Source: Patulibacter minatonensis DSM 18081 (GTDB lineage Bacteria; Actinomycetota; Thermoleophilia; Solirubrobacterales; Solirubrobacteraceae). From it: 64,000 nucleotides of DNA. Position 1 is the first letter of the stretch. Each line of letters opens with the position of its first letter. The stretch is from assembly GCF_000519325.1 (NCBI RefSeq), contig NZ_KI912613.1, forward strand, positions 2,581,415-2,645,414, written 5' to 3'. The position numbers were made by a program, and so were the translations under genes. Positions 17,256-58,882 of the stretch are shown here, one piece after another. A model generated the notes under the pieces. It did no database searches. It worked only from the letters and a program-made list of their open reading frames with translations, and was not told where the DNA came from.

Positions 17256-17813
17256 CCGGTCTCCACGTCGCGCGCCTCTGGCACCAGGGCGCCATGTCGA
17301 CCGACCACGAGAAGCCGCTCGTCCGACGAGCTACGGGATCGGTGCGCGGTCGTCCGGTCCGCCCGCGTCCCGCCCGTGCTCGTCCAGGACCTCGATCCAG
17401 TCGTCCAGCTGGTGGAGCAGCGACGCGAGGCGCTGGTGCAGCTGCTGCGTGGCGCGGTGCAGGCGCTCCGCGTCGGCGGGCCGCGGCGCAGGGCGTTCGG
17501 GGTCCGGTACGGGACCGGGGAGCGACGACGGGCAAGGCAACGGTCAAACCTCAGGATGGGGCTCGGGGCGGCGCGCGAGCAGGGGAGGCCTCGGTGATCC
17601 CGGGGGAGGAGGGTCCCCGGGGCCGCCGGACGAGGGCGAGGGATCCGGCCACCGGAGCACGGAGACCGACGATCACCTCCTAGAACGCAGCCGCGGCCCG
17701 TGCGGTTGCCATGGCGTGCACCGCGCGCCGAGCTGCCCCGGCCGGAACCGGGGCGCGGTCCCGTGCGCGGTGCTCCGCCTTCGGGTCGGCCGACGTCGCC
17801 GGTCCGTCTGCGC
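17256..17813. other. 558-base gap with a possible small ORF and a hairpin
   Basis: Contains the candidate small protein at 17331-17540 and, at 17599-17621, a hairpin with CCCGGGG and CCCCGGG arms. The rest (17541-17813) has no convincing frame on either strand and no recognisable RNA. Confidence 0.4.
17331..17540 (-). CDS. Putative small helical protein
   Basis: A 69-residue frame from a TTG at 17540. Its middle (RLHRATQQLHQRLASLLHQL, then DDWIEVLDEHG) has heptad-like Leu spacing and looks like an amphipathic coiled coil. The ends are Pro/Asp-rich. There is no clear ribosome site and the start codon is rare, so this may be a chance frame. No family recognised. Confidence 0.35.
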   Translation of the reverse strand: MPCPSSLPGPVPDPERPAPRPADAERLHRATQQLHQRLASLLHQLDDWIEVLDEHGRDAGGPDDRAPIP

Positions 17814-18779
17814 CTAGAGCGGGCCGTCGACCGCGCGGCGGAACGACACGCGGTTCGCGCGGGCGAGGTCGCGGATCGCCCGGTGCGCGATCGGGTGGTA
17901 GCGCAGCACCGGCGGCAGGACGCCGTTGAGCCCGCGGATGCCGGTCCGCAGGACCGCCAGGAGCTGCTCGTCGCGGTCGCGCCAGCGCACGCCGAGCGTC
18001 TCCCGCGCGCTGGGCGGCAGCGCGCCGATGCCGACCCAGAGCCATGCGCCGAGGAGCGGACGCTGCACGAGCCGCCAGACGCCGTCGGGAAGCCCCGGCA
18101 CCGGGCACGGGACCCCGTTGCGCGCCGCGTCGAGGATGCCCTGGGACGTCGCGTTGCGCTCGAGGACCTCGGCGCACATGTGCTCGAACCACGCTTCGAG
18201 AGCGGCGCGGTCGGCCGGGACGGCGGAGTCGTCGGCGCCGTACCGGCGGTACCAGAGCAGCGCCTCCGCCCAGAGCTGGTCGAGCTCCTCGTCGGTGAGC
18301 GGGACCCCGAGCCGCTCGGTGCCGGCGACGATGCCGTGGACGAACGTGACGTGCGCCCAGAAGAAGGTCTCGCCGTCCAGGGCGTCGTAGTCGCGACCTT
18401 GATCATCCGTGCCCCGGATCGTGCGGTGGAAGCCCCGCACGAGCTCGCCGGCGTCGGTCGGGCCGGGTGCTGCGTGGGGATCGGCGTAGACCACCCGCAT
18501 GATGTGGGGGACCGAGCGCATGATCCGGTCGAGCGGGTCGTCGAAGAAGTTCGAGTGCTGGACGAGCGAGGCCCCGATCGCGGGGTGCATCGTCTGCAGC
18601 AGCCCGACGGAGCCCGCGGTCAGCGCCATGTAGGACTCCCCGAACAGGCGCCACGTCAGGGAGCCGGGCCCGAGACCGAGCGGCGGGCCGTCCCCCGGCG
18701 GGACCGACGGCTCCGAGCTCGGCTCCGGCGATCGGGGGCCGCCGATGCGCGGGAGCCGGACGGGGAGCGGGATCCGCAT
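17814..18779 (-). CDS. Oxygenase MpaB family protein (DUF2236)
   Basis: A 321-residue protein with the DUF2236/MpaB pattern: SLTWRLFGESYMALTAGSVGLLQTMHPAIGASLVQHSNFF, GFHRTIRGTD and FFWAHVTFVHGIV, the His-rich segments proposed to bind haem in this family. MpaB and latex-clearing-protein relatives cleave C-C double bonds with O2. The C-terminal part is hydrophobic. Start is ATG 18779 because the family similarity begins right after; the frame continues upstream without a ribosome site. Substrate unknown. Confidence 0.85.
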   Translation of the reverse strand: MRIPLPVRLPRIGGPRSPEPSSEPSVPPGDGPPLGLGPGSLTWRLFGESYMALTAGSVGLLQTMHPAIGASLVQHSNFFDDPLDRIMRSVPHIMRVVYADPHAAPGPTDAGELVRGFHRTIRGTDDQGRDYDALDGETFFWAHVTFVHGIVAGTERLGVPLTDEELDQLWAEALLWYRRYGADDSAVPADRAALEAWFEHMCAEVLERNATSQGILDAARNGVPCPVPGLPDGVWRLVQRPLLGAWLWVGIGALPPSARETLGVRWRDRDEQLLAVLRTGIRGLNGVLPPVLRYHPIAHRAIRDLARANRVSFRRAVDGPL

Positions 18780-18922
18780 GGCGACGCTACGTGCGGCGGC
18801 GCCCGGCGGACGTCGGCCGTCGCCGCACCCGCGCCCCGGCATCGCGGGCGCCGACCGGAGCCGGCCGGGGAACGCTCGGACACTCGGGCTGGCCCGCCCG
18901 GCCCGCCCGGGCAGGACACCCC

Positions 18923-18964
18923 CTGATCGGGTGGTCGGTCGGGCGCTTTGGCGCATCGACGGTC
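18923..18964 (+). promoter_or_regulatory. Conserved non-coding element, copy A
   Basis: CTGATCGGG (18923-18931), exactly 16 bases, TTGGCGCATCG (18948-18958), one variable base, CGGTC (18960-18964). The same blocks with identical spacing occur at 24537-24578. The arrangement resembles a promoter or a two-half-site regulator target upstream of the glutaredoxin-like/secreted-enzyme genes. I do not recognise it. Confidence 0.5.
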
Positions 18965-19073
18965 GCCCTCCCGTGCTTCGAGGGGGCAGGATCGCGACGG
19001 CGGCCGCCGGGCCATGCATCGACCACACGGGACATTCTCCGTCGTGGGCGGCCGTCACGGTGGCGCCGTCGTG

Positions 19074-19095
19074 CGTGCCTTACGCGGTACGGCAC
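19074..19095 (-). promoter_or_regulatory. Conserved GTGCCnTACCGCGTAA motif, copy A (reverse)
   Basis: On the minus strand this site reads GTGCCGTACCGCGTAAGG. A copy at 24257-24276 on the plus strand reads GTGCCTTACCGCGTAATGG. Sixteen of the first seventeen bases after alignment agree. It lies about 80 bases upstream of the GTG of the glutaredoxin-like gene. Confidence 0.45.
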
Positions 19096-19170
19096 GGTGC
19101 CGGCGACCGTCGGTCGTCCCGTGCGCCCGTCGCGGACGCCTGCGCCGGACCACCCCCGACCTCCACCCTC

Positions 19171-19623
19171 GTGCTGCACCTCACCATCTTCACCGCGCCA
19201 GGCGACGAGCGATGCCGCCGGGCCCTTCGCACCCTCGGCAGGCACGGCGTGCCCTACGCCGAGGTGGCGGCCGACCGCGACCCGGACTTCCACCGACGAC
19301 TGCGGAGGCTCACGGACGACCAGGCGCTGCCCCAGGTCGTCGTCGACGGGACGCACGTCGGCGGCCTGGAGGCGCTGTGGCGCCTGGACCGGCTGGGCAT
19401 CCTGCGCGCGCTCGCCGACGGACGCGCGGACCCGGTGGTCCGCGTCCGTCGGACCGGGCACCTCGTCGGCGGCCGGACGTGGACGGCCGAGCGGTACGGC
19501 CTCGACGGTCGACGCATCGGCCGGGTCTTCGGCGCCACCGAGGCGGACGCCCGGGCCGCGCTGAACGCCGCGCCCCCGGCTCGCCGTCCCGCGATGCCGC
19601 CGCGCCCCACGACGCGACCCTGA
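19171..19623 (+). CDS. Glutaredoxin-like protein
   Basis: A 150-residue protein from GTG 19171. Residues 1-75 match a glutaredoxin/thioredoxin-fold pattern: LTIFTAPGDERCRRALRTL (a single Cys at the second position of the usual CxxC), VPYAEVAADRDPDF, then the cis-Pro region ALPQVVVDGTHVGGLEAL. The remaining half, VRRTGHLVGGRTWTAERYGL and onward, is not part of a standard glutaredoxin. A monothiol redox or regulatory role is possible. Start is uncertain because the frame is open further upstream. It lies 44 bases before the secreted enzyme gene. Confidence 0.65.
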   Translation: MLHLTIFTAPGDERCRRALRTLGRHGVPYAEVAADRDPDFHRRLRRLTDDQALPQVVVDGTHVGGLEALWRLDRLGILRALADGRADPVVRVRRTGHLVGGRTWTAERYGLDGRRIGRVFGATEADARAALNAAPPARRPAMPPRPTTRP

Positions 19624-19667
19624 CCTTCACCCGTCCCGACACGCCCCCTCCGACCGAAGGACCAGAG

Positions 19668-20702
19668 ATGGACGACCACGCCCCGAAGCACCGCACGAGC
19701 CGCAGGCTCCTGGCCATCGCCGCCGTCGCGCTCGCCGGCGTCGGCTCGACGGCGCCCGCACACGCTTCGACCACTTGGGGGATCGCCGACCAGAAGCCCG
19801 CGACGTTCACCGACCCGGCGTTCCTGAAGCTCCGTGTCGCCGGCATGAGGACGGCGCGCTACACGGTCCGGTACGACGCCCTCCGGTACCGCAGCAGCTC
19901 CCGTCTCGGGTACCACGCGCAGAACCTCGACGCGTGGCTCACGGCCGCGCGGGCGGCGGGCGTCCGCCCGCTGGTGACCTTCTGGGTGACCGCCTCGGGC
20001 TCGCGGTCGCTGAAGCGCCGGATCTCCACGACCCGTTTCCGGACCGAGTTCCGGCACTTCCGCAGGGCCTACCCGTGGGTCCGGGACTTCTCGCTCTTCA
20101 ACGAGCCGAACCTCACCGGTCCGTACAAGCGGGATCCCGCGGCGCTCGGCCGGCTCTATCGGACGATCAGCAGGGACCTGCGCGGCTGCCGCAGCTGCCG
20201 GTTGCTCGCCGGCGACCTCCACCTGACCTCCGGTCGCTCGGCCGCGTCGTACGCCCTGAAGGTCCGTCGCGCGGCCAGGATGCCGGTCCGGATCTGGGGC
20301 CTCAACAACTACAACGACGTCAACGACCGCCGCTCCACGCAGACGTCGAGGTTCCTCCGCTCCTCCGCGGTGAAGCACGCGAAGGTGTGGATCACCGAAT
20401 CCGGTGGCGTGTACAGCCGGAAGGCATCGTCGGAGCGGAAGAACCCGTTCCTCGCGCAGCGCCGGAAGGCGACGGGGGACGCCGCGCGGGAGCGGTACCA
20501 GTACGACGCCACGCGCTACCTCAGGACGATCGCCAGGCGCTGCCGGCGGCAGATCCAGCGCGGCTACGTCTACCAGCTTCGGTCCGAGCCCGACCCGTCC
20601 TGGGTGCCCGGCACGCGCAACGCCTCGTGGGACTCCGGGCTGCTGGACCCGCGGGGCGAGGAGCGCCGGTCCTACGGCTACGTGCTGCGGCACCTGCTGT
20701 AG
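19668..20702 (+). CDS. Secreted glycoside hydrolase-like (TIM-barrel) protein
   Basis: A 344-residue protein with a signal peptide (basic start, LLAIAAVALAGVGSTAPAHA). The mature part follows the clan GH-A plan: GIADQKPATF at strand 1, RYTVRYDAL, then DFSLFNEPN with the acid/base Glu at strand 4, and VWITESGG with the nucleophile Glu near strand 7. Such proteins hydrolyse polysaccharide glycosidic bonds outside the cell; the specific family cannot be fixed here. Start ATG 19668. A strong hairpin follows the stop. Confidence 0.78.
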   Translation: MDDHAPKHRTSRRLLAIAAVALAGVGSTAPAHASTTWGIADQKPATFTDPAFLKLRVAGMRTARYTVRYDALRYRSSSRLGYHAQNLDAWLTAARAAGVRPLVTFWVTASGSRSLKRRISTTRFRTEFRHFRRAYPWVRDFSLFNEPNLTGPYKRDPAALGRLYRTISRDLRGCRSCRLLAGDLHLTSGRSAASYALKVRRAARMPVRIWGLNNYNDVNDRRSTQTSRFLRSSAVKHAKVWITESGGVYSRKASSERKNPFLAQRRKATGDAARERYQYDATRYLRTIARRCRRQIQRGYVYQLRSEPDPSWVPGTRNASWDSGLLDPRGEERRSYGYVLRHLL

Positions 20703-20720
20703 CCCCCGCCGGTGGACGCG

Positions 20721-20756
20721 GAACGGGACCGGCGGTCGCAGACGCCGGTCCCGTTC
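20721..20756. terminator. Perfect 14-bp hairpin, likely bidirectional terminator
   Basis: Arms 20721-20734 and 20743-20756 are perfect complements (GAACGGGACCGGCG and its reverse complement) around an 8-base loop. It lies 19 bases after the secreted-enzyme stop and 52 bases before the convergent ferritin-like gene stop. Confidence 0.75.
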
Positions 20757-20808
20757 GTCGGCCGCAGGCCGTCTTCCCGTCCGGTCCCCTTCCGGAGCGG
20801 GAGGAGTC

Positions 20809-21624
20809 CTACGAGGGCTTGATCGTGTTGACCCCCGCGATCGTCGGCGTGCGGGCGGAGACCTCGCCGTACTTGTACGCCGTGCCCGGCTTGCTGCCCG
20901 GCTTGCCGAACCCGAACCCGGCCGACTCGAGGACCGTGACCGCGTCACCGATCACGTAGAAGCCCGGGGTCCCGGTGGTGGCCAGGCCCTGGGTCTGCTC
21001 GCGCTGGGCGAACTTCGAGTACGCGCGGTCGTTGCCGAGCTGCCCCAGCGACTGCAGCGCGAGCGCGCGGTGCACGGCCTCGACGCCCATGATCTCCGCG
21101 GCGTAGCGCGCGAGGCGGGAGCCCTGGAGGGTGCCCATCCGCGCGAACACCGTGGTGCCGAGCAGGTAGGCGTTGATGAACACCTGGTCGCCGACGGCGA
21201 GGGTGCGCAGCAGGTTCTCCGGCGAGGCGAAGACCTCGTCGGGCACGTAGATGGTGTCGGTGACGGCCTTGCCGCCCACGGCCGGGGAGGTCAGGACCTC
21301 GTAGTGGTTCTTCTCCTGCTGCGCGGCGGCCTGCACGTTGCGGAGGGTGACCGGGTCGAGCTGGCCCTTGAGCTTCTCCGCGCCGACCGTGTTGACGATC
21401 GTCGCGAGGACCTCGGCCGTCGCGGCGACCGCGGCGATGTTCTCGACCTTGTTCGCATCGGCGGTGTTGACCTTCGCCTCGGCGGTGCCGGTCGCGAGCC
21501 CCATGAGGCCGAGCGAGCCGAGCGCGACCGCGGTGCCCTTGACCAGGTTGCGGCGGGTCGCCGCGGGCTGGTCGGCGTTCTGCCGGTCGATGGTCTCGTA
21601 GAGGTGGTTGGTGACGTCCGTCAT
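20809..21624 (-). CDS. Tat-exported ferritin-like domain protein
   Basis: A 271-residue protein with an N-terminal Tat-type leader (TRRNLVKGTAVALGSLGL, then an AEA cleavage-like site near residue 50). The mature protein is helical with repeated Glu/His placement typical of ferritin-like bundles: ATAEVLATIVN, QQEKNHYEVL, YAAEIMGVEAVHRALAL. It may bind a di-metal centre in the cell envelope and is annotated elsewhere as desiccation-related or ferritin-like. Start ATG 21624 has AAGGAG upstream. The role is not established. Confidence 0.78.
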   Translation of the reverse strand: MTDVTNHLYETIDRQNADQPAATRRNLVKGTAVALGSLGLMGLATGTAEAKVNTADANKVENIAAVAATAEVLATIVNTVGAEKLKGQLDPVTLRNVQAAAQQEKNHYEVLTSPAVGGKAVTDTIYVPDEVFASPENLLRTLAVGDQVFINAYLLGTTVFARMGTLQGSRLARYAAEIMGVEAVHRALALQSLGQLGNDRAYSKFAQREQTQGLATTGTPGFYVIGDAVTVLESAGFGFGKPGSKPGTAYKYGEVSARTPTIAGVNTIKPS

Positions 21625-21823
21625 GCGGACTCCTTCGTCGTGATGGGAGCTCCCGAGTGCGAGATGCGGGTCCGGGTCACGGACCTGGTCGACCGCCGCG
21701 GGCGGCGACCTCGGACGACGCGCACGACCGGATCGCGAGGGGGCGTCGACGGAGAGCTCGGTGGCAGGAGCGGGGCATGGTGCGGAGGGCGCGCCGGGGC
21801 GGGGTCCCCCCCGTCGACATCCT

Positions 21824-21844
21824 GACTCTTACAACGTAAGAGTC
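21824..21844. promoter_or_regulatory. TetR-type operator, distal copy
   Basis: GACTCTTAC and GTAAGAGTC form a perfect 9-bp inverted repeat around AAC. The core CTTACAACGTAAG (21828-21840) is the exact reverse complement of the site at 22079-22091. It is probably bound by the TetR protein encoded at 23554. Confidence 0.65.
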
Positions 21845-22045
21845 GATCCGTCGGATGCATCCATCCCGCCCGGTCGTGCGGCGTCTCATCGCGCGTCTGG
21901 CGCTGCGGCGCTCGAGATCGACCCGCCGGACGGGTGGTTATCGACGGCGGGCATGCTCCGCCGGGGTCGTCGTCGGCGGCCCCGGGAGGGCCGCCGTCGT
22001 CGGCGTGGGTCGGCGGCGCCGCGCGGTGGCGTGCTCGGGCCACGT

Positions 22046-22064
22046 CACAGGTCCGTCACCTGTG
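22046..22064. promoter_or_regulatory. Inverted repeat upstream of the ClC gene
   Basis: CACAGGT and ACCTGTG flank a 5-base centre, 37 bases before the ClC start codon. It could be a second regulator site. No known motif is assigned. Confidence 0.35.
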
Positions 22065-22078
22065 CCGAGGCTCACGAT

Positions 22079-22091
22079 CTTACGTTGTAAG
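22079..22091. promoter_or_regulatory. TetR-type operator, proximal copy
   Basis: CTTACGTTGTAAG, two 5-bp arms around GTT, ends 9 bases before the ClC start codon GTG at 22101. Binding here would block translation-start-proximal transcription. It equals the 21828-21840 core read on the other strand. Confidence 0.65.
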
Positions 22092-22100
22092 GTTCGTCCG

Positions 22101-23543
22101 GTGACCGTCCCACCCGGCCGTGCCGAGACTCCGAGAACGCTCCGTCGGACCGTCCTGGGGGAGTGGGAGGCCCACCGCGGGCTCGTCGTGCTCGCGATCC
22201 TGATCGGCCTCGGGGGCGGCCTCGGCGCGATCGCGTTCCGGGAGCTGATCGTCGGCATCACCCACCTGGCGACCGGGCACGACGACTACGCCGGGCTCGG
22301 ACGGGTCGCCCACCCGCAGCTCCCCTGGCTCGGTCCGTGGTTCCTGCTGGTCGTGCCGGTGCTCGGCGGGCTGGTGTACGGGCCGCTCCTGGCGTTCTTC
22401 GCCCCCGAGGCGCGGGGCCACGGCGTCCCCGAGGTCATGCTCGCCGTCGCGCGTGACGGCGGACGGATCCGGCCGCGGGTCGCGATCGTCAAGGCCCTGG
22501 CCTCCGCCGCCTGCATCGGGACGGGCGGCTCGGTCGGGCGCGAAGGGCCGATCGTGCAGATCGGCTCGGCGCTGGGCTCGACCCTCGGGCAGCTCTCGCG
22601 ACGCTCGGGCGACGAGCTGCGGCTCCTCGTCGGTTGCGGCGCCGCGGCGGGGATCTCGGCCACCTTCGACACGCCGATCGCCGGCGTGTTCTTCGCGATG
22701 GAGGTCATCCTCCGGCGCGTGGACGCGGCGTCGTTCGCGCTTCCCGTCCTCTCCTCGGTCGTCGCCGCCGCGGTCGGTCGCGCCGTCTTCGGCGACGAGC
22801 CGTTCCTCGCGCTCCCGCACGTGACGCTCTCGTCCGCCGCGGACTACCCGCTGTTCGTGGGCCTCGGGGTCGTGGCGGCGATCGTCGGCACCGGGTTCGT
22901 GCGCACGCTCTACGGAGTCGAGGACCTCGCCGACCGCCTCTGGCGCGGACCGGCCTGGGCCCGCCCGGTGGCCGGCGGGGTGCTGCTCGGCGCGATGCTG
23001 CTCGCCCTCCCGGAGCTCTACGGCGTCGGCTACCCCGTGCTCACGAGCGTCGTGGAGGGACACCACGCGCTCGGGCTCGTCCTGCTGCTCCTCGTCGCCA
23101 AGGCGGTCGCGACGAGCACGACGATCGCCATCGGCGGGTCCGGGGGTGTGTTCGCCCCGTCGCTCTTCCTCGGCGCGATGCTCGGGTCCGCGTTCGGACG
23201 GGTCGGGCACCTCGTCCTCGGGGGCGCGATGGCCGCGTCGAGCGCCTACGGCGTGATCGGGATGGGCGCGGTGTTCGCCGCCTGCTCGAGGGCCCCGATG
23301 ACCGCGGTGCTGATCCTCTTCGAGCTCACGGGCGACTCCGGCGTGATCCTCCCCGCGATGCTGGCGATCGTCGTCGCCGTGGCGACCGCCCGGGCGCTGG
23401 GCCACGACGACATCTACACGCTGAAGCTCCGCCGACGGGGCATCGACATCGACGCGCCACGACCACCCGCCGAGGACGACGCGTCGACGGCGACCGACGG
23501 CGCCGGGATCCGTCGACCCACCCCCGGATACGGCGTTCCCTAG
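22101..23543 (+). CDS. ClC-family chloride channel/transporter
   Basis: A 480-residue membrane protein with the selectivity-filter motifs of ClC proteins: GTGGSVGREGP (E148 gating Glu), GGSGGVFAPSLFLGA, and MTAVLILFELTG. About ten or more hydrophobic helices are visible. At the intracellular proton-glutamate position the sequence reads FFAMEVILRR, so E203 of the E. coli exchanger is Val (V202 here), as in channel-type ClCs. No CBS domains. Start GTG 22101 follows the operator. The TetR gene starts 11 bases after the stop, indicating an autoregulated two-gene operon. Confidence 0.88.
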   Translation: MTVPPGRAETPRTLRRTVLGEWEAHRGLVVLAILIGLGGGLGAIAFRELIVGITHLATGHDDYAGLGRVAHPQLPWLGPWFLLVVPVLGGLVYGPLLAFFAPEARGHGVPEVMLAVARDGGRIRPRVAIVKALASAACIGTGGSVGREGPIVQIGSALGSTLGQLSRRSGDELRLLVGCGAAAGISATFDTPIAGVFFAMEVILRRVDAASFALPVLSSVVAAAVGRAVFGDEPFLALPHVTLSSAADYPLFVGLGVVAAIVGTGFVRTLYGVEDLADRLWRGPAWARPVAGGVLLGAMLLALPELYGVGYPVLTSVVEGHHALGLVLLLLVAKAVATSTTIAIGGSGGVFAPSLFLGAMLGSAFGRVGHLVLGGAMAASSAYGVIGMGAVFAACSRAPMTAVLILFELTGDSGVILPAMLAIVVAVATARALGHDDIYTLKLRRRGIDIDAPRPPAEDDASTATDGAGIRRPTPGYGVP

Positions 23544-23553
23544 TGTCTCCCGC

Positions 23554-24207
23554 ATGCCCGTCGCAGAGGACCGGTCGCGCCGCGACGGACCACTCAGTCG
23601 CACGGCCGTGCTCGATGCGGCGATCGCCCTGGTGGAGCGCGACGGCGCGAACGCGCTGACGATGCGCCGCCTGGGGGCCGAGCTCGGCGTCGAGGCCATG
23701 TCGCTGTACCACCACGTGCCCAACCGCGACGCGGTCCTCTCGGGCATGGCGGAGCGGCTGATGTCGCAGCTGCAGCCGCCGCCGAAGGGGGCGGGGTGGC
23801 AGGACGCGGGCGAGTGGTTCGCGAGGCAGCTGCGGATCGTCGCGACCAGCTCACCCCAGACGTTCGCCCTGACCGCGATGCGACCGCTCCTGGAGACGCG
23901 TGCCCTCGAGCCCGTCGAGGCGCTGCTGGCCGCGCTGGTCCGGGCCGGGGCGTCTCCGGCCGACGCGCTGATGGCCTACCGGGCCCTCGCGAGCTACGCG
24001 CGCGGCTACGCGCTCGCCGAGGTGGCCGGGTTCACGGTCGACGCGACGTCCGCCGACGGCGAGGGCGCGCTCGGGGCGCTCGACACGGACGCCTTCCCGA
24101 TCCTCGCGGGTCGCCGGGACGAGCTCCGCGACGTCCGCGCCGACCGGGCCTTCGACGTCGGGCTGGAGGCGCTGATCGCGGGGCTCTCCGCGACGCTCGT
24201 CCGCTGA
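23554..24207 (+). CDS. TetR family regulator (TetR_C_1 type)
   Basis: A 217-residue regulator. Residues 14-65 give the DNA-binding domain (SRTAVLDAAIALVERDGANA, MRRLGAELGVEAMSLYHHVPNRDAVL). The YHHVPNRDAVL form and the C-terminal helices are like the class of TetR proper. It follows the ClC gene by 11 bases and is the obvious candidate for the two CTTAC/GTAAG operators upstream of that gene. The inducer is unknown. Start ATG 23554. Confidence 0.88.
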   Translation: MPVAEDRSRRDGPLSRTAVLDAAIALVERDGANALTMRRLGAELGVEAMSLYHHVPNRDAVLSGMAERLMSQLQPPPKGAGWQDAGEWFARQLRIVATSSPQTFALTAMRPLLETRALEPVEALLAALVRAGASPADALMAYRALASYARGYALAEVAGFTVDATSADGEGALGALDTDAFPILAGRRDELRDVRADRAFDVGLEALIAGLSATLVR

Positions 24208-24256
24208 CGCACGCGGGCCTCGCGCCATGCGCCTGACCGGGGTCGCGAGCCAGCCC

Positions 24257-24276
24257 GTGCCTTACCGCGTAATGGG
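24257..24276 (+). promoter_or_regulatory. Conserved GTGCCnTACCGCGTAA motif, copy B
   Basis: GTGCCTTACCGCGTAATGGG; its core TTACCGCGTAA is a perfect palindrome. The reverse-strand counterpart is at 19074-19095. It lies 50 bases after the TetR stop codon. Confidence 0.45.
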
Positions 24277-24536
24277 CGCGATCGGGTCGTGGTCGCGTCG
24301 GGCTCGGTCGGGCGGGAGACGGCAGGACGACGCGACCGGGGTCCCCCATGGTCCCCGGCCGCGCCGTGATCGTCCGCCCTGTGTCAGTCGCAGATTCGGG
24401 AGTGATGGGGGGACGGATCTCGGAGTGCTGATGGTGGTCGTAACCGGGCCGTCCGGTGAGAGTTGCGGTGCGCGATGTGGCGTGCTCGCCATCGTTCGGC
24501 GCGCACGGCGGTATGCCGTTTCTGGCGCTACCCCCG

Positions 24537-24578
24537 CTGATCGGGGGGTATCTGCGGCGTGTTGGCGCATCGGCGGTC
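24537..24578 (+). promoter_or_regulatory. Conserved non-coding element, copy B
   Basis: CTGATCGGG (24537-24545), 16 bases, TTGGCGCATCG (24562-24572), one base, CGGTC (24574-24578), ending 85 bases before the secreted-protein ATG. The blocks and spacing match 18923-18964. A promoter or operator for both genes is the simplest reading. Confidence 0.5.
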
Positions 24579-24663
24579 ATTGGGACGCCTTGTGACAGGT
24601 GTCCAACGACGGCCACGACCCGGACCCCGGGCGGCCGCGGATCCACGACAAGGGAGCACCCCC

Positions 24664-25620
24664 ATGCATCTCGACCACGACACGAACCAGACCACCGACA
24701 CCGAGCGCACCGGGCTCCGTCGCCTGCTGCCCCGCCGCGGCTCCGGCCGGACGCGGGCGGTGCTGCTCGGCACGGGCGTCCTGGCCTTCGGGGTCGCACC
24801 GCTGACCTACGCCGCAACCGGCGGCACGCTGACCCTCGGCGAGCGCAACGGCGCGAGCTCGGAGACCGAGATCATCTCCAACGAGGGCGCGGGGACCGGC
24901 GCCAAGGGCGGGTACTCGACCCGCCAGTCGAACCTCTCGTCCACCGGTGGCGGAGCGATCTACGGCTGCCGCTCGACGGCGCGGACGACCGCGAAGGACG
25001 AGAAGAACCCGTGCCTCCGGGCGAACAACCTGTCCAACGGTCTGGCGTTCGAGTTCCGCTCGACCCGCGGCAGCGTCGCCGGAGACATCAGCGTCGGCAA
25101 CGGCGGCGACGGGGCCAAGCCGTTCACGACCAACGCCACCGGCGTGGCGACCGGCCTGAACGCCGACCGCGTCGACGGGTTGAACGCCGAGGACATCGCC
25201 AAGGCCGCGACCGCGATCGCCGACAAGGCCGCCACCGACAAGGCCGCGGCGGCGAAGTCGCGCTGGGCCCTGGTCAACGAGAAGGGCGAGATCGAGGAGC
25301 AGTCCGGGGGCTTCAAGGTCATCGACTGCTACACGACCAACGACAACTGCTATCTGGACGCCGGTGCCACGGTCGCCGGCCACGGCGTGAGCGCGACCAT
25401 CGCGCTGCAGAACCAGGTCGACGTCGACGGCACCGCCGGCGCCGATGCGAACTTCTCGGGCGAGGTCTCCGCCGCGCGCTGCCAGGTCGCCAACGTCGTC
25501 GCCTGTGCCCCCGACGGCGCGAAGACCGAGAACGCGTTCGTCGTCAGCCCGCGCAACAGCGACGGCACGCCCACGAAGGCCGGCGCCCGCAAGCGCTTCT
25601 ACGTCGAGATCACCGGCTGA
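24664..25620 (+). CDS. Secreted hypothetical protein
   Basis: A 318-residue protein from ATG 24664 with GGGAG upstream. Residues 1-35 are basic, followed by a hydrophobic signal/anchor (AVLLGTGVLAFGVAPLTYAA). The mature part starts with GGTLTLGERN, has paired cysteines (IYGCRSTA and NPCLRA; VIDCYTTNDNCYL; ARCQVANVVACA), and a central motif NADRVDGLNAEDIAKAA followed by a Lys/Ala-rich helix. I recall similar NADRVDG-type segments in secreted proteins of Thermoleophilia, but no function is known. Probably beta-rich and extracellular. Confidence 0.7.
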   Translation: MHLDHDTNQTTDTERTGLRRLLPRRGSGRTRAVLLGTGVLAFGVAPLTYAATGGTLTLGERNGASSETEIISNEGAGTGAKGGYSTRQSNLSSTGGGAIYGCRSTARTTAKDEKNPCLRANNLSNGLAFEFRSTRGSVAGDISVGNGGDGAKPFTTNATGVATGLNADRVDGLNAEDIAKAATAIADKAATDKAAAAKSRWALVNEKGEIEEQSGGFKVIDCYTTNDNCYLDAGATVAGHGVSATIALQNQVDVDGTAGADANFSGEVSAARCQVANVVACAPDGAKTENAFVVSPRNSDGTPTKAGARKRFYVEITG

Positions 25621-26136: not shown

Positions 26137-28206
26137 TCAGCGGATGGCGCGGGCGGTGAACGTGCTCGTGAAGGTGACGGTCCTCCGGCCCTTCTGGCGG
26201 ATCGTGACGCGGATCCGGTGGCGGCCGCTGCGGGCGTCCTCCTTCGGGATCACCTCGACGCGCGGGCGGCCGGTGCGGCCGAACGTCCGGCTGCCGGAGG
26301 CGATCGTCCTGCCCCCACGGGTGATCCGCACGCTGACCGTGCGCCGGCCGCTGCCGGCGGGGGTCTCGCCGGTGATCTCGACGACGCACCGCGCGCGGCT
26401 CCGCTTGTACTGCCGCTCGCAGCGGTAGAACACCCCGAGCCCGCGCGACCCCTTGGGGCCACGGAGGCCGACGGGCCCGGTCGGCCCGGGCAGGCCCGGG
26501 GTGCCCTGGGGGCCGACGTCGCCCTTGCCGCCGGTCGCACCCGTCGGGCCGGTCGCACCCGGGGTGCCGTCGGCGCCCGGGGCTCCCATGGCGCCCGTGG
26601 GGCCGGTCCCGCCGGCGGGACCGGTCGTTCCGATCGGACCCTGCGGACCCTGAGCGCCCTGCGGACCGGGCCCGCCGGCCGGGCCGGTCGCCCCGGGTGC
26701 GCCGTCGTTCCCGGCCGGGCCGGGCGCGCCCGGGGGGCCGGCGGGGAGCTCCGCGGCGGTGCCCGTCAGCGGGACCGCGGCGTTCGAGAACGCGTCGTCC
26801 GAGACGACCGCGAGCTGGGCGGCGCGCGCAGCGGTGGCGACCGGTGCCCCGGGCGCGAAGCGCACGACGACCTCGCAGGTGCCGCCCGCCGGCAGGGACT
26901 GGCCGGTGCAGGTGTCGCCGCCGATCAGGAAGTCGTCGCGGTCGGCGCCGGTCGTCCGCACGGCGCGCACGGCCGAGGGCACGACGCCGCTGTTGGTGAC
27001 CGTCACCGGCTGCCCGGCGCTGACGGTGCCGACGGGCTGGGCCCCGAACGCCGCGGGGGCCGCGAACGTCAGCGGGCGCGGCGTGGCGTTCCGCAGCACC
27101 CCGACCGCGTTGTTGTCCGTGTTGGTCATGGCGACGTCCGGTCGTCCGTCCCCGTCCAGATCACCGATCGCCAGGGCGAGGGGGAGCGCGCCGCCCGTGT
27201 CCGTCGACTGGGCCGTGTACCCGTTGCCGGTGGCGTTCTTCGTCTGGACCGTCACCGCGTTCGCGTTCGCGTCGGACGTCGCGATGTCGGGGCGGCCGTC
27301 GCCGTTGAGGTCCCCGATCGCGACGCTGCGCGGGTAGGCGGCGGTGCGCGCGGCGACGGCGGACGAGAAGCCGCCGCCGGCACGGTTCGTCAGCACCGTC
27401 ACCGTGTCGGAGTAGCTGTCGGAGGTGGCGACGTCCGGTCGTCCGTCGCCGTTGAGGTCGCCGATGGCGACGGAGCTCGGGATGGAGCCGGTGGTGCCGA
27501 GGGTGGCGGGCGCGTAGCCGGCACCGGTCGCGTTCTTGATCAGGCCCGTGACCGTGTCGGAGCCCCCGTCGGCGGTGACGATGTCGGGTCGTCCGTCGCC
27601 GTTGAGGTCGCCGATCGCCAGTGCCTGCGGGGCGCCGCCCGTGGCCCCGGCGGTGGAGGACGTGAATCTGTCGCCGACGGCGTCCTTCGTCAGCACCGTC
27701 ACCGAGCCGGTGCCCGTGGTCGCATTCGCGGTCGCGAGGTCGGGGCGGCCGTCGCCGTTGAGGTCGCCGATCGCCACGGCGGTCGGGACCGGGCCGGTCG
27801 GCCCTGCGACGGCGGCCGTGTACCCGACGGCGTCCTTGAAGAGGACCGTCACCGTCTCGTCGTCCTGGTTCGCCGTGGCGATGTCGGGCCGGCCGTCGCC
27901 GTTGAGGTCGCCGACGGCCACGGACACCGGCTCGTCGCCGGCGGGGAAGGCGGCGCGGGTGAAGGTGCCGTCGCCGGCGTCCTGCGTCAGCACCGTCACG
28001 GTGTCCTTGTTGGCGTCGGCCGTGGCGATGTCGAGCCGCCCGTCGCCACTGAGGTCCGCGAGCGCGATCGAGACGGGACGACCACCCGTCGAGCCCGCGA
28101 CCTGCGCGGGAGCGAAGGTCGGGGGTGCGGCCGCGGCGACGGCCGGGAGCACGGCCAGCGCGGCGACGGTGAGCAGAGCGGTGCGGGCGGACCGGGAGGC
28201 GGGCAT
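26137..28206 (-). CDS. Secreted FG-GAP repeat / choice-of-anchor D / collagen-like protein (paralog 1)
   Basis: A 689-residue protein. A signal peptide (residues 1-27, ending AVAAAA) is followed by seven FG-GAP/VCBS-type repeats of about 47-51 residues (30-375), each with the calcium-binding loop DLNGDGRPD. An ASH/choice-of-anchor D domain (about 380-480) ends in CTGQSLPAGGTCEVVVRFAPG. About 33 Gly-X-Y triplets (485-590) form a collagen-like segment, and a basic beta-rich C-terminal domain with a Cys pair (FYRCERQ, ARCVVEITG) follows. The likely role is an extracellular surface or matrix protein. The ATG shares one base with the stop of the upstream paralog, so both are made together. Confidence 0.85.
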   Translation of the reverse strand: MPASRSARTALLTVAALAVLPAVAAAAPPTFAPAQVAGSTGGRPVSIALADLSGDGRLDIATADANKDTVTVLTQDAGDGTFTRAAFPAGDEPVSVAVGDLNGDGRPDIATANQDDETVTVLFKDAVGYTAAVAGPTGPVPTAVAIGDLNGDGRPDLATANATTGTGSVTVLTKDAVGDRFTSSTAGATGGAPQALAIGDLNGDGRPDIVTADGGSDTVTGLIKNATGAGYAPATLGTTGSIPSSVAIGDLNGDGRPDVATSDSYSDTVTVLTNRAGGGFSSAVAARTAAYPRSVAIGDLNGDGRPDIATSDANANAVTVQTKNATGNGYTAQSTDTGGALPLALAIGDLDGDGRPDVAMTNTDNNAVGVLRNATPRPLTFAAPAAFGAQPVGTVSAGQPVTVTNSGVVPSAVRAVRTTGADRDDFLIGGDTCTGQSLPAGGTCEVVVRFAPGAPVATAARAAQLAVVSDDAFSNAAVPLTGTAAELPAGPPGAPGPAGNDGAPGATGPAGGPGPQGAQGPQGPIGTTGPAGGTGPTGAMGAPGADGTPGATGPTGATGGKGDVGPQGTPGLPGPTGPVGLRGPKGSRGLGVFYRCERQYKRSRARCVVEITGETPAGSGRRTVSVRITRGGRTIASGSRTFGRTGRPRVEVIPKEDARSGRHRIRVTIRQKGRRTVTFTSTFTARAIR

Positions 28207-30362
28207 CAGCGGGATCCTTCGGCGACGAAGAGGCGGGTCAAGGTGGTCGCGCGGCGCCCGGGGATCCCGGTCGTGACGCGGAGGCGGTAGCGGGCGCCGG
28301 GGCGGAGCCGGGCGCCCGCGGTCGACGTGAGCGCGATGCGGTGCGGTCGCCCGGAGCGGACGGTGCGGACGCCGGTCGCCACGGTGCGGCCGTTCCGGGT
28401 GATCCGGACCGCGACCCTGCGGGCGGCCAGGCCGGCCGAGTCGCTGTAGGTCAGGTAGCACGCCCGGACGAAGCCCCCGCCGCGTCGCGCCTTGCGGCAG
28501 CGGTAGACGGCGATCGGTCCGTCCTTGCCGCGCGGACCGGTCAGCCCGATCGGTCCCGCCGGGCCGGGGACGCCCTGCGGTCCCTGGTCGCCGGTCGGGC
28601 CGGTCGCTCCGCCGGGTCCGGCCGCCCCGGTGGTCCCGGGCGTACCGGTGGTGCCGCCCGGGCCCGATGCGCCCGGTCCCCCGGGAGGACCGGTCAGGCC
28701 ATCCGGTCCGACGGTCCCGAGGACGCCGGTGGGTCCCTGGCCGCCGACGGGTCCGGCGCCGCCGGTCGGCCCTCCGCCGCCGTCGGGACCCGGCGGTCCC
28801 GCGGTCCCCGGGGCGCCCTGCGGTGCACCGCCGGCGGTCCCGCTCAGCGCCACGGTCGTGCCGAAGAGCCCCCCGCCGGTCAGGACGCGCAGCGTGCCCG
28901 TCCGGGTCGGCCGCGAGGTGTCGAGGGCGGGCAGGAAGCGCACCCCGACGGTGCAGGTCCCGCCGGCGGGGACGGTCTCGTTGGTGCAGTCGTCGCCGGA
29001 GAGCGCGAAGTCCGCGCCGTCGACCCCGCTGATCTGCAGTCGTTCGACACGTGCGGGCGTCTCGGCGGTGTTCCGGATCGTCACGCGCTGCGCGCCGCTG
29101 ACCGTGCCGCCGGCCTGCACCCCGAACGCGGCCGGGGTCGTGACCGTGACCGTCGGTGCGCTCGTGTTGGTCAACACGCTGACCGTGTCGGAGCCCCCGT
29201 CGGCGGTGGCGAGGTCGGGGCGTCCGTCGCCGTCGAGATCCGCGATCACCACCGAGTCCGGGCTGCTGCCGGTGGAGCCGGCGGTGGTGGTCGTGTACCC
29301 GGGGCCGGTGGCGTCCTTGGTCAGCACCGACACCGTGTCGGCGTCGAGGTTGGCGGTGGCGAGGTCGGGGCGTCCGTCGCCGTTGAGGTCCCCGATCGCC
29401 ACCGAGTAGGGGAAGCTGCCTGCGCCGGTGGAGCCGGCGTTGGTGGTCGTGTACCCGGGGCCGGTCGCGTCCTTGGTCAGCACCGACACCGTGTCGGTGC
29501 CCGAGTCGGCGGTGGCGAGGTCGGGGCGTCCGTCGCCGTTGAGGTCCCCGATCGCCACCGAGTACGGGCTGCTGCCGGTGGAGCCGGCGGTGGTGGTCGT
29601 GTACCCGGGGCCGGTGGCGTCCTTGGTCAGCACCGACACCGTGTCGGAGAAGCGGTCGGCGGTGGCGAGGTCTGGGCGTCCGTCACCGTTCAGATCCGCG
29701 ATCGCCACCGTGAACGGGCGACTGCCGGGGATGCCGGTGGTGGTGGTCGTGTACCCGGGGCCGGTGGCGTCCTTGGTCAGCACCGACACCGTGCTGTCGG
29801 ACTGGTTGGCGGTGGCGAGGTCGGGGCGTCCGTCGCCGTTGAGGTCCTCGATCGCCACCGAGACGGGAAACCTGCCGGTGCTCCCTGCGATGGTGGTCGT
29901 GTACCCGGGGCCGGCCGCGTCCTTGATGGACACCGACACCGTGTCGGAGAAGTAGTTGGTGCTGGCGAGGTCGGCGCGTCCGTCGCTGTTGAGGTCCCCG
30001 ATCGCCACCGACTGCGAGACGGCGCCGGTGGTCCCGGTCGCGGTGGTCGTGTACCCGGGCCCGACCGCGTCCTTGGTGAACAGCGACACCGGGCCGGGGC
30101 TCGAGGTGAAGTTGGCGGTGGCGAGGTCGGGGCGTCCGTCGCCGTTGAGATCCCCGACCGCCACCGACTGCGGGCTGCTGCCGGTGGTGCCGGCGGTCCG
30201 GGTGGGGGCGAACGTCGGCGCGCCGGCGGCCGTCCCGGTCGCTGGGACGAGGGCCAGCCCGAGCGCGGCTGTCGCACACGTCGCGCCCACCCGCCGCAGG
30301 GCCTTGCCGGGTGGCGCGGTCCCGAGGCCCGTCGCTGTCCGTCGGGCGGAGCCACGCTGCAT
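28206..30362 (-). CDS. Secreted FG-GAP repeat / choice-of-anchor D / collagen-like protein (paralog 2)
   Basis: A 718-residue protein with the same architecture as its downstream neighbour. It has a signal region (GATCATAALGLALVPATGTAAG), seven 50-residue FG-GAP repeats with DLNGDGRPDLATA, an ASH domain ending CTNETVPAGGTCTVGVRF, about 34 Gly-X-Y triplets (about 516-617), and a C-terminal beta domain (YRCRKA, RACYLTYSD, RVAVRITRNGRTV). The FG-GAP repeats are nearly identical at DNA level, unlike those of paralog 1, pointing to recent expansion. Start ATG 30362. Direct repeats lie upstream. Confidence 0.85.
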   Translation of the reverse strand: MQRGSARRTATGLGTAPPGKALRRVGATCATAALGLALVPATGTAAGAPTFAPTRTAGTTGSSPQSVAVGDLNGDGRPDLATANFTSSPGPVSLFTKDAVGPGYTTTATGTTGAVSQSVAIGDLNSDGRADLASTNYFSDTVSVSIKDAAGPGYTTTIAGSTGRFPVSVAIEDLNGDGRPDLATANQSDSTVSVLTKDATGPGYTTTTTGIPGSRPFTVAIADLNGDGRPDLATADRFSDTVSVLTKDATGPGYTTTTAGSTGSSPYSVAIGDLNGDGRPDLATADSGTDTVSVLTKDATGPGYTTTNAGSTGAGSFPYSVAIGDLNGDGRPDLATANLDADTVSVLTKDATGPGYTTTTAGSTGSSPDSVVIADLDGDGRPDLATADGGSDTVSVLTNTSAPTVTVTTPAAFGVQAGGTVSGAQRVTIRNTAETPARVERLQISGVDGADFALSGDDCTNETVPAGGTCTVGVRFLPALDTSRPTRTGTLRVLTGGGLFGTTVALSGTAGGAPQGAPGTAGPPGPDGGGGPTGGAGPVGGQGPTGVLGTVGPDGLTGPPGGPGASGPGGTTGTPGTTGAAGPGGATGPTGDQGPQGVPGPAGPIGLTGPRGKDGPIAVYRCRKARRGGGFVRACYLTYSDSAGLAARRVAVRITRNGRTVATGVRTVRSGRPHRIALTSTAGARLRPGARYRLRVTTGIPGRRATTLTRLFVAEGSR
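29190..30185 (-). repeat. Tandem 150-bp coding repeats within paralog 2
   Basis: Seven units of 150 bp (one of 156) follow each other. The string GTGTACCCGGGGCC recurs at 29293, 29449, 29599, 29749, 29899 and (one base changed) 30049. Each unit encodes one FG-GAP repeat. The spacing and identity indicate tandem duplication that can expand or shrink by recombination without a frameshift. Confidence 0.85.
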
Positions 30363-57125: not shown

Positions 57126-57139
57126 GATGCGGACGCATC
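57126..57139. promoter_or_regulatory. Inverted repeat upstream of tatA
   Basis: GATGCG and CGCATC flank GA, 104 bases before the TatA start. It lies in a gap that should hold the promoter of the tatA-sigK-rskA operon. No regulator is assigned. Confidence 0.35.
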
Positions 57140-57242
57140 CGATCGGTGGACCCGGTCGTTCTAGGGGGTGAACGGATCGCCTCCGGGTGTTCCGCAGGTC
57201 GCCTCGGTGGCCGTGCCTCGTCAAACGTCAGCAGGAGTGCCC

Positions 57243-57452
57243 GTGCCGCTCGGAATCGGACCCATGGAGATCGTCATCGTGCTGGTGATCGCGCTGGTCG
57301 TGATCGGCCCCGCGAAGCTCCCCGGCATGGCGAAGTCGCTGGGCACCGGCGTGCGGGAGTTCAAGGACTCGCTGTCCGGCGATTCCGACGATCGCGACGA
57401 GACCCCGGCGCCCCAGGCGACCGTCGGCTCCGCGCGCAGCGAGGCGGTCTAA
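57243..57452 (+). CDS. tatA: Twin-arginine translocase subunit TatA
   Basis: A 69-residue protein: one N-terminal membrane helix (GPMEIVIVLVIALVVIGPAKLPG), the conserved hinge, then an amphipathic helix (MAKSLGTGVREFKDSL) and an acidic tail. GTG 57243 with AGGAG 5 bases upstream is preferred. TatA oligomers form the translocation pore for folded proteins. It starts an operon with the sigma and anti-sigma factor genes (7 bases to sigK). Confidence 0.85.
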   Translation: MPLGIGPMEIVIVLVIALVVIGPAKLPGMAKSLGTGVREFKDSLSGDSDDRDETPAPQATVGSARSEAV

Positions 57453-57458
57453 GCTCCC

Positions 57459-58052
57459 ATGCGCATGGCGCCCCCTTCGGACCACCTGAGTTCCCTGTCC
57501 GACCGGGCGCTGATGGAACGCGTGGCGAAGATGGACGCGGAGGCCTTCGAGGTCTTCTACGACCGTCACGTCTCGTCCGCCTACGCCTTGGCCTACCGCA
57601 TCGTCGGCAGCCGGCAGCCGGCCGACGACGTCTGCCAGGAGGCCTTCCTCTCCGTGTGGCGGTCCGCCGCGCGGTACGACGCCGACCTCGGCAACGCGCG
57701 CTCCTGGATCCTGGCGGTCGTCCGCAACCGGGCGATCGACCACCTCCGTCGCGTGACCCGCACGAAGGAGCGCGAGGTCGCCGACGAGGCCCTCGCCGAG
57801 CGCCACCCCGCCCCACACGACCAGGGCACCGAGTCCTCGGCGCTGCGCAACGCGCAGGCCGGCGAGACCCGCGAGCTCATGAACGAGCTGTCCGAGGATC
57901 AGCGGCGCGTCATCGAGCTGTCCTTCTACTCGGGGTACTCGCACAGCGAGATCTCCGCGATGCTCGAGCTGCCGCTCGGCACCGTCAAGGCCCGGATGAA
58001 CCGCGGCCTCGCGCGCATGCGCAACGTCCTTTCGGCCGGAGAGACCACATGA
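57459..58052 (+). CDS. sigK: RNA polymerase sigma factor, SigK-like ECF type
   Basis: A 197-residue ECF sigma factor. Region 2 is ERVAKMDAEAFEVFYDRHVSSAYALAYRIVGSRQPADDVCQEAFLSVW; region 4 is ELSEDQRRVIELSFYSGYSHSEISAMLELPLGTVKARMNRGLARMR. It ends with an ATGA overlap into the anti-sigma gene, typical of SigK-RskA pairs. SigK assignment follows that partner; otherwise a general ECF factor. Confidence 0.88.
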   Translation: MRMAPPSDHLSSLSDRALMERVAKMDAEAFEVFYDRHVSSAYALAYRIVGSRQPADDVCQEAFLSVWRSAARYDADLGNARSWILAVVRNRAIDHLRRVTRTKEREVADEALAERHPAPHDQGTESSALRNAQAGETRELMNELSEDQRRVIELSFYSGYSHSEISAMLELPLGTVKARMNRGLARMRNVLSAGETT

Positions 58053-58882
58053 GCAGCGCAGACGCCCCGCGCGATCTGATCGGACCCTTCGTCCTCGGCG
58101 CCTGTACGGCCGAGGAGGGTGCGCAGGTCCGCGCCCACATGACCGCGTCGCCCGAGTTCCGGGCCGAGGTCGACTCCTTCGACGACGTCTACGGCGCGCT
58201 GCTCGACGTGCCCACCCCCGACGTCGGGCCCGGCCCCGACCTCAAGCGCTCGATCATGGCGCAGGTCCAGGCCGAGGCCTCGCTGTTCCAGGCGGCCGGC
58301 CCGGACGAGCGCGCGGCGCTGGTCCGCGAGCACGCCCGGGCCGCGGACGCCGCGGAGCCCCCGGTCGCCACCCCGGCGCCTGCCGTGTTCCGGGGCGAGG
58401 GCGAGCCCGGGCCCAGCCCGCGACGCAACGCGTTCCTCGACGCCCTGATGCACCCGGCTCGCGCGACCGCGCTGGCGGCGGTGCTCGTGGCGTTGATCGT
58501 CGGCGGGATCGTGCTGGGAAACGGCGGAGGCGGTGACGGCAGCGGAGGATCCTCCGGTCCGCGGGAGTACATCGGGCAGTTCACCGACCCGGCGAAGGCC
58601 AAGCAGGCGACGGTCAAGATGGTCGCCGACAAGGACACCAACCAGCTGCGCCTCCACGGGTTCATCCCGGCCGGCGAGGGCAAGAAGTACCAGGTGTGGC
58701 TGCGCTCCGGCGACGGCGACCCGAGGCCGACGAAGGTCCTCTTCGACGTCGACGGCAAGGGCAACGCCACCGCGACGGTCCCCGGGGACATGGCTGATGT
58801 CGACGACGTCCTGGTGACGGCCGAGCCCGCCTCCGGGTCGACCACGCCGACGTCGGACCCGGTCTTCCACGTCCAGATCTGA
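58049..58882 (+). CDS. rskA: Anti-sigma-K factor (RskA-like)
   Basis: A 277-residue protein: N-terminal anti-sigma domain (LIGPFVLGACTAEEGAQVRAHM), one membrane helix (TALAAVLVALIVGGIVLG) near residue 140, and a C-terminal RskA extracytoplasmic domain with MVADKDTNQLRLHGFIPAGEGKKYQVWL. It holds the sigma factor until an envelope signal triggers release. The start ATG 58049 overlaps the sigma stop. Confidence 0.9.
   Translation: MSSADAPRDLIGPFVLGACTAEEGAQVRAHMTASPEFRAEVDSFDDVYGALLDVPTPDVGPGPDLKRSIMAQVQAEASLFQAAGPDERAALVREHARAADAAEPPVATPAPAVFRGEGEPGPSPRRNAFLDALMHPARATALAAVLVALIVGGIVLGNGGGGDGSGGSSGPREYIGQFTDPAKAKQATVKMVADKDTNQLRLHGFIPAGEGKKYQVWLRSGDGDPRPTKVLFDVDGKGNATATVPGDMADVDDVLVTAEPASGSTTPTSDPVFHVQI

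What the first reader, a model, noticed from the sequence alone, without database searches (positions are those of the whole stretch)
18780..24663. Two unknown non-coding elements shared by the same two distant intergenic regions
Element 1: CTGATCGGG, exactly 16 bases, TTGGCGCATCG, one base, CGGTC at 18923-18964 and 24537-24578. Element 2: GTGCCnTACCGCGTAA, forward at 24257-24276 and reverse at 19074-19095. Both occur once in each of the gaps 18780-19170 and 24208-24663 and, by eye, nowhere else here. Both precede genes for exported proteins (19668 and 24664). Twenty-five fixed bases with fixed spacing are unlikely to arise by chance in two places. They may be a regulon's promoter plus operator, or ends of a degenerate mobile unit; relative order and orientation differ between copies.
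Basis: partly seen in the sequence, partly recalled or inferred. Interest (0 to 1): 0.65.

Follow-up and report, generated by a model that had tools for sequence, protein, structure and literature searches.

The report
TetR-type operators beside a promoter module
The two repeated non-coding sequences are real: one is most likely the DNA docking site of a TetR-type repressor encoded between them, with four such sites within 5 kb, and the other is most likely part of the promoter of an exported-protein gene; together they are a small local control circuit of an ordinary kind in a bacterium of the genus Patulibacter.

Summary
Both elements exist as described. Element 1 (CTGATCGGG-N16-TTGGCGCATCGNCGGTC) is found exactly twice in the 5.52-Mb genome; a third copy (23/25 letters, same spacing) lies before the orthologous exported-protein gene of another Patulibacter. 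Its right half occupies an invariant GCATC box about 90 bp before the start codon in the gene family's promoters. Several of these read GCATCC-N16-CGTT, a motif that is non-coding at 39 of 42 sites read and precedes a tatA-sigK-rskA operon in the same window. Element 1 scores poorly against that motif, so its sigma factor is inferred, not shown.

Element 2 is a palindrome (its "reversed" orientation means nothing) and a tetO-like operator. CTTACnnnGTAAG (at most one mismatch) has six sites in the genome, four within 5.2 kb here: at glutaredoxin, Ferritin_2, the clc-tetR operon, and behind tetR. The TetR encoded at 23554 is the likely binder: relatives' tetR genes carry the same TAC-N3-GTA sites.

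The gene directly after copy 1 is glutaredoxin, not the exported gene at 19668. New member of known kinds. The left half of element 1 and its copy before glutaredoxin remain unexplained.

The parts
18923..18964 (+). element 1, copy 1 (CTGATCGGG-N16-TTGGCGCATCGACGGTC), upstream of glutaredoxin
   Evidence: sequence
24537..24578 (+). element 1, copy 2, ending 85 bp before the ATG of the exported-protein gene; right half lies in the conserved promoter box
   Evidence: sequence
19076..19096 (.). tetO-like operator 1 (element 2), palindromic arms GTGCCnTACnnnGTAnGGCAC, 75 bp before the glutaredoxin start
21824..21844 (.). tetO-like operator 2, GACTCTTACAACGTAAGAGTC (perfect arms), overlapping the CGTT of the Ferritin_2 gene promoter
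   Evidence: conserved in G007
22079..22091 (.). tetO-like operator 3, CTTACGTTGTAAG, overlapping a TAAGGT -10-like hexamer just before the GTG start of the clc-tetR operon
24257..24277 (.). tetO-like operator 4 (element 2), GTGCCTTACCGCGTAATGGGC, 49 bp after the tetR stop codon
   Evidence: core also just after the tetR stop in G007 and G002
23554..24207 (+). tetR-family repressor gene (TetR_N + TetR_C_1), proposed binder of all four operators
22101..23543 (+). clc chloride-channel gene, first gene of the clc-tetR operon (GTG start inferred)
20809..21624 (-). Ferritin_2 family protein gene with Tat-like signal
21833..21858 (-). promoter-like GCATCC-N16-CGTT of the Ferritin_2 gene; its CGTT is inside operator 2
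19171..19623 (+). glutaredoxin gene (GTG start inferred), the gene directly after element 1 copy 1
24664..25620 (+). gene of an exported protein of unknown function (no Pfam match), family present across Solirubrobacterales
57135..57160 (+). best match in the window to the same promoter motif (GCATCCGATCGG-N10-CGTT), upstream of tatA-sigK-rskA
57459..58052 (+). ECF sigma factor gene, closest to SigK
58049..58882 (+). anti-sigma factor gene (RskA_C), overlapping the sigma gene

Best explanation
The region is a local TetR regulon laid over ECF-type promoters. Element 2 is the operator of the TetR repressor encoded at 23554-24207: a dimer binds 13-21-bp palindromes centred on TAC-N3-GTA at four places and, by analogy with TetR, represses glutaredoxin, the Ferritin_2 gene, its own clc-tetR operon and possibly the exported gene until an unknown ligand releases it. 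Element 1 is a promoter module: its right half (GCATCG) takes the place of the -35 box (GCATCC in relatives) of an ECF-type promoter about 90 bp before the exported gene, and its left half (CTGATCGGG, 27 bp upstream) is an extra upstream control site, so far seen only where tetR is linked. A second copy drives, or once drove, transcription toward glutaredoxin. Shown: sequences, positions, conservation, genome-wide rarity, protein families, association of TAC-N3-GTA with relatives' tetR genes. Inferred: binding, repression, ligand release, which sigma factor reads element 1, function of its left half.
For: Element 2: only 6 CTTACNNNGTAAG sites (at most 1 mismatch) in 5.52 Mb, 4 of them within 5.2 kb around tetR; no TTAC-N3-GTA in a 400-kb sample of the genome versus 4 in the window; GCCTTACGCCGTA directly after the tetR stop in G007 and G002; two CTTACGTTGTAAG sites before the 94%-identical Ferritin_2 gene of G007; one to three TAC-N3-GTA sites 29-169 bp upstream of tetR homologs in 7 of 14 other loci. 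TetR_N/TetR_C_1 match; best solved relatives are Tet repressors and ActR. The core ACTCTTACGTTGTAAGAGT has the layout of tetO (TCTATCATTGATAG, PMC9736018). Element 1: third copy with same spacing before the orthologous gene of G007, also behind a tetR ortholog; GCATC invariant in all nine promoters aligned; several family promoters read GCATCC-N16-CGTT; that motif is non-coding at 39 of 42 sites read (about 20% for random positions) and precedes tatA-sigK-rskA, Ferritin_2, CcdA, DsbA-like and OsmC genes.
Against: Element 1 scores weakly against the GCATCC-N16-CGTT matrix (4.9 and -1.8 bits versus 13-37 for the sites it was built from): its -10 slot (GCTT, CTTG, CCTT) does not match CGTT. The operator distances differ: about 260 bp upstream of element 1 in copy 2, about 110 bp downstream in copy 1, so there is no fixed promoter-operator geometry. 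Operator 4 lies in the 3' region of tetR, an odd place for repression. The raw count of GCATCC-N16-CGTT in the own genome (12) is hardly above the composition expectation of 8.9; the case rests on position and orthology. Element 1 is known from three loci in two genomes only. Seven of 14 more distant TetR loci lack TAC-N3-GTA just upstream of the gene.
Confidence: 0.66

Rival explanations
1. Element 1 is not a core promoter but a bipartite operator for a separate, unidentified regulator (possibly an activator) that controls the exported gene and glutaredoxin; the GCATC coincidence with the family's promoter box is partly accidental.
For: The left half is conserved as tightly as the right half between the two genomes, and element 1 matches the ECF promoter matrix poorly.
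Against: The right half aligns with a box invariant in nine promoters of the gene family at a near-constant distance from the start codon; no third genomic copy exists, which is unusual for a regulator with its own regulon.
Confidence: 0.22
2. Copy 1 of element 1 is a chance or non-functional remnant (for example a decayed copy of the exported-gene promoter left by a rearrangement); only copy 2 and the operators matter.
For: The 49-bp similarity is marginal for two GC-rich gaps found by searching a 64-kb window; it stops after 49 bp; the neighbouring genes have no orthologous promoter with it in relatives; the glutaredoxin has no close ortholog in relatives.
Against: All 25 letters and the 16-bp spacing are kept; expected exact hits in the genome are far below one; the same gap also carries a well-formed element 2 palindrome.
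Confidence: 0.25
3. The two elements are ends of a degenerate mobile element.
For: Two direct copies 5.6 kb apart.
Against: G007 has tetR next to a single element 1, so the right junction is ancestral; no recombinase or transposase was recognised among the genes between the copies; element 2 is a palindrome with two further copies inside the interval.
Confidence: 0.02
4. The elements belong to a structured RNA (riboswitch or leader).
For: They lie in long gaps upstream of genes.
Against: No Rfam match even at E<=1 in 18700-24700; element 2 homologs sit on either side of tetR genes, in no fixed position relative to transcripts.
Confidence: 0.03

Closest known systems
TetR/tetO (class A-H tetracycline repressors; TetR_C_1, PF02909)
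   Same: Same repressor family; 19-bp palindromic operators with the same layout (CTCT-TAC-N3-GTA-AGAG against CTCT-ATC-N3-GAT-AGAG); an operator over the promoter of its own operon.
   Different: Operator core TAC instead of ATC; the recognition-helix stretch reads VEAMSLYHHV instead of VEQPTLYWHV; targets are clc, Ferritin_2, glutaredoxin and perhaps an exported protein, not a tetracycline pump; below the NCBIfam cut-off for tetracycline TetR (75 of 265 bits).
Actinobacterial TetR_C_1 regulators such as ActR and Pip of Streptomyces coelicolor
   Same: ActR is among the best solved relatives. From memory, Pip sites read GTAC-RSC-GTAC, the same TAC-N3-GTA core; this could not be verified in the paper library.
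   Different: Those control drug export; no drug exporter is among the sites here, only a chloride channel.
SigK-RskA (ECF19) systems
   Same: ECF sigma closest to SigK (NCBIfam 148.6 bits; PDB 4nqw) with an overlapping RskA_C anti-sigma gene; apparent autoregulation through GCATCC-N16-CGTT; candidate regulon rich in exported and thiol-redox proteins.
   Different: The sigma scores below the NCBIfam SigK cut-off (226); tatA heads the operon; the link from this sigma to the motif is by position only; element 1 itself is a poor match.

Membership tests
TetR-family repressor/operator system | TetR_N DNA-binding domain and a TetR C-terminal domain | tested here: met
   PF00440 32.6 bits (cut-off 24), PF02909 42.7 bits (cut-off 21)
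TetR-family repressor/operator system | palindromic operator near the tetR gene | tested here: met
   four palindromic sites within 5.2 kb; conserved beside tetR in G007 and G002 and upstream of tetR homologs in 7 of 14 further loci
TetR-family repressor/operator system | binding of the operator and release by a ligand | not testable with these tools
   needs gel shift and ligand screen
Tetracycline-resistance TetR (NF010319) | score above curated cut-off and adjacent tetracycline exporter | tested here: not met
   75.4 bits against 265; neighbours are clc and an exported protein
GCATCC-N16-CGTT promoter class | -35 GCATCC and -10 CGTT 16 bp apart | tested here: not met
   element 1 has GCATCG and GCTT/CTTG; matrix scores 4.9 and -1.8. 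Met by the Ferritin_2 promoter and the 266-kb paralog of the exported gene
SigK/RskA (ECF19) pair | ECF sigma with RskA-type anti-sigma in one operon | tested here: met
   Sigma70_r2/r4_2 and RskA_C; SigK best NCBIfam and PDB hit, though below the SigK cut-off
Mobile element | recombinase gene, terminal repeats, empty site in a relative | tested here: not met
Known structured RNA family | match to an Rfam model | tested here: not met

The most novel reading that the evidence does not exclude
A SigK-like ECF sigma factor and a TetR-type repressor jointly control envelope and thiol-redox genes in Patulibacter: the repressor's operator is written over the -10 box of the sigma's own promoter class (at Ferritin_2), and element 1 is a diverged form of that promoter with an added upstream site specific to TetR-linked loci.
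Probability: 0.3. Interest if true: 0.5.

Novelty: new member of a known kind. Interest (0 to 1): 0.36.

Why it matters
It turns two anonymous repeats into a testable circuit: a named repressor gene, four operators and their target genes. It also gives what appears to be an ECF (SigK-like) promoter motif with a readable candidate regulon for Patulibacter; no regulatory study of this genus showed up in the paper library.

Tried and rejected
Exported gene at 19668 as the target of copy 1: its orthologs lack both elements. The divergent MPAB-family gene at 17814-18779 as target: orthologs in G002 and G007 lack both elements. TGGCNNGCATCCA-N15-CGTT as a genome-wide regulon: with 2 mismatches the hits were close to the reversed control in several genomes; the shorter GCATCC-N16-CGTT was the informative form, but its raw count is near the composition expectation. 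Copy 1 as a full duplicate of promoter plus gene start: similarity ends after 49 bp. Mobile-unit ends. Structured RNA. A published SigK promoter consensus and the Pip operator consensus were looked for in the paper library and not found, so those comparisons are from memory.

Full report
Observation. Element 1 is present exactly as described at 18923-18964 and 24537-24578. In the complete 5.52-Mb chromosome these are the only exact hits; at 3 mismatches of 18 two more appear against one in the reversed control. Element 2 is present at 24257-24272 and 19080-19095. The local alignment of the two gaps is 49 bp, 78% identical; its score of 43 exceeds all of 500 dinucleotide shuffles (maximum 40) but would be only marginal if the whole window had been searched for pairs. 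The genus is Patulibacter (class Thermoleophilia), judged from the titles of the closest records; contig lengths identify G007 as Patulibacter sp. E1_metabat.bin.19 and G004 as P. americanus DSM 16676.

Independent support for element 1. A search of 40 relatives found one good further copy, in G007, with 23 of 25 letters and the same 16-bp spacing. It lies before the ortholog (82% identity) of the exported gene 24664, and that gene again follows a tetR ortholog of about 78% identity. The footprint between the two species covers the two halves of element 1, while the 16-bp spacer is half changed.

What element 1 is. In paralogs and orthologs of the exported gene the right half aligns with TTGGCRYGCATCCA-N15-CGTT at a near-constant distance from the start codon, and GCATC is invariant in all nine promoters aligned, copy 1 included. 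GCATCC-N16-CGTT occurs 84 times in eight Patulibacter genomes. Component frequencies in a 400-kb sample predict about 8.9 where 12 hits are seen in the own genome, so the count alone shows little. Position shows more: of 42 sites read in context, 39 are called non-coding, against about 20% of random positions by the same crude test. Most lie just upstream of a gene, and the same genes recur across species: tatA, a second tatA, Ferritin_2-like proteins, a DsbA-like lipoprotein, CcdA, a methyltransferase, a tetR and a response regulator (gene names there are my reading of the translations, apart from those in the window, which were scanned). The best match in the window (57135) precedes tatA, an ECF sigma gene and an RskA-type anti-sigma gene; the tatA-sigma order and the promoter are kept in four genomes. 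The sigma is closest to SigK (NCBIfam 148.6 bits, below the cut-off of 226; PDB 4nqw). I infer that this is an ECF promoter class probably read by that sigma. Element 1 itself fails the strict test: GCATCG instead of GCATCC, no CGTT, matrix scores 4.9 and -1.8 against 13-37 for the sites the matrix was built from. It is therefore best called a diverged or related promoter, with the sigma factor open. The left half has no assignment beyond a position about 27 bp upstream of the -35 slot.

What element 2 is. The site at 19076-19096 is a palindrome, GTGCCnTACnnnGTAnGGCAC. The core CTTAC-N3-GTAAG (at most one mismatch) has six sites in the chromosome, four in this stretch: 19079, 21828, 22079 and 24261. 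The site at 21824-21844 is GACTCTTACAACGTAAGAGTC, with perfect arms, and overlaps the CGTT of the Ferritin_2 promoter. The site at 22079-22091 overlaps a TAAGGT hexamer 8-13 bp before the GTG of clc, the first gene of the clc-tetR operon. In G007 two CTTACGTTGTAAG sites precede the Ferritin_2 ortholog, and in G007 and G002 GCCTTACGCCGTA follows the tetR stop codon. Among 14 more distant tetR homologs, seven have one to three TAC-N3-GTA sites 29-169 bp upstream of the gene; in the own-genome sample the motif occurs twice in 400 kb. The encoded protein has TetR_N and TetR_C_1 domains, and Tet repressors and ActR are its closest solved relatives. The operator layout equals that of tetO with TAC for ATC (tetO sequence in PMC9736018; the full 19-bp tetO form is from memory). 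I take element 2 to be the operator of this TetR with high confidence (about 0.85); binding and ligand are untested.

Mechanism. Proposed: TetR dimers hold down clc-tetR (autoregulation), Ferritin_2, glutaredoxin and perhaps the exported gene, and a ligand releases them. ECF-type promoters provide the positive input at Ferritin_2 and the exported gene. At Ferritin_2 the two inputs meet on the same bases. Steps shown by sequence: sites, overlap, conservation. Steps inferred: binding, repression, sigma identity, ligand.

Limits. Element 1 is known from three loci in two genomes. The distance between element 1 and the operator is not fixed. Operator 4 lies behind tetR, about 260 bp upstream of element 1 copy 2, which is an unusual place. 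The glutaredoxin start codon (GTG 19171) and the clc start (GTG 22101) are inferred. No transcript data exist here.

Verdict. Real, largely explained, of known kinds. The by-product, an ECF-like promoter motif with a readable candidate regulon in Patulibacter, is worth more than the original observation.

Noticed in passing
window 57135-58882: tatA - ECF sigma (SigK-like) - RskA-type anti-sigma operon preceded by GCATCCGATCGG-N10-CGTT; promoter and tatA-sigma order kept in P. americanus, G002 and G007.
   Followed up: yes
loci L302-L341: GCATCC-N16-CGTT lies upstream of Tat components, ferritin-like proteins, CcdA, a DsbA-like lipoprotein, OsmC, a cupredoxin, a DoxX-like protein, a tetR and response regulators in several Patulibacter genomes: a probable envelope/thiol-redox ECF regulon.
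   Followed up: partly
window about 17684-17709 (-): GCAACC-N16-CGTTCTAGGAGGTG is the third best match in the window to the same promoter matrix (16.5 bits); its target gene was not examined.
   Followed up: no
L247 (G019): A distant homolog of this TetR is encoded directly beside a SigK-like sigma and anti-sigma pair (47% and 31% identity to those in the window).
   Followed up: no
window 24310-24362; L042 about 1000-1070: GC-rich inverted repeats behind tetR in the own genome, G007 and G002 that look like a transcription terminator; operator 4 lies between the stop codon and this hairpin.
   Followed up: no
window 26137-30362: Two neighbouring minus-strand genes encode repetitive exported proteins (repeated DLNGDGRPD units followed by collagen-like Gly-x-y stretches).
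   Followed up: no
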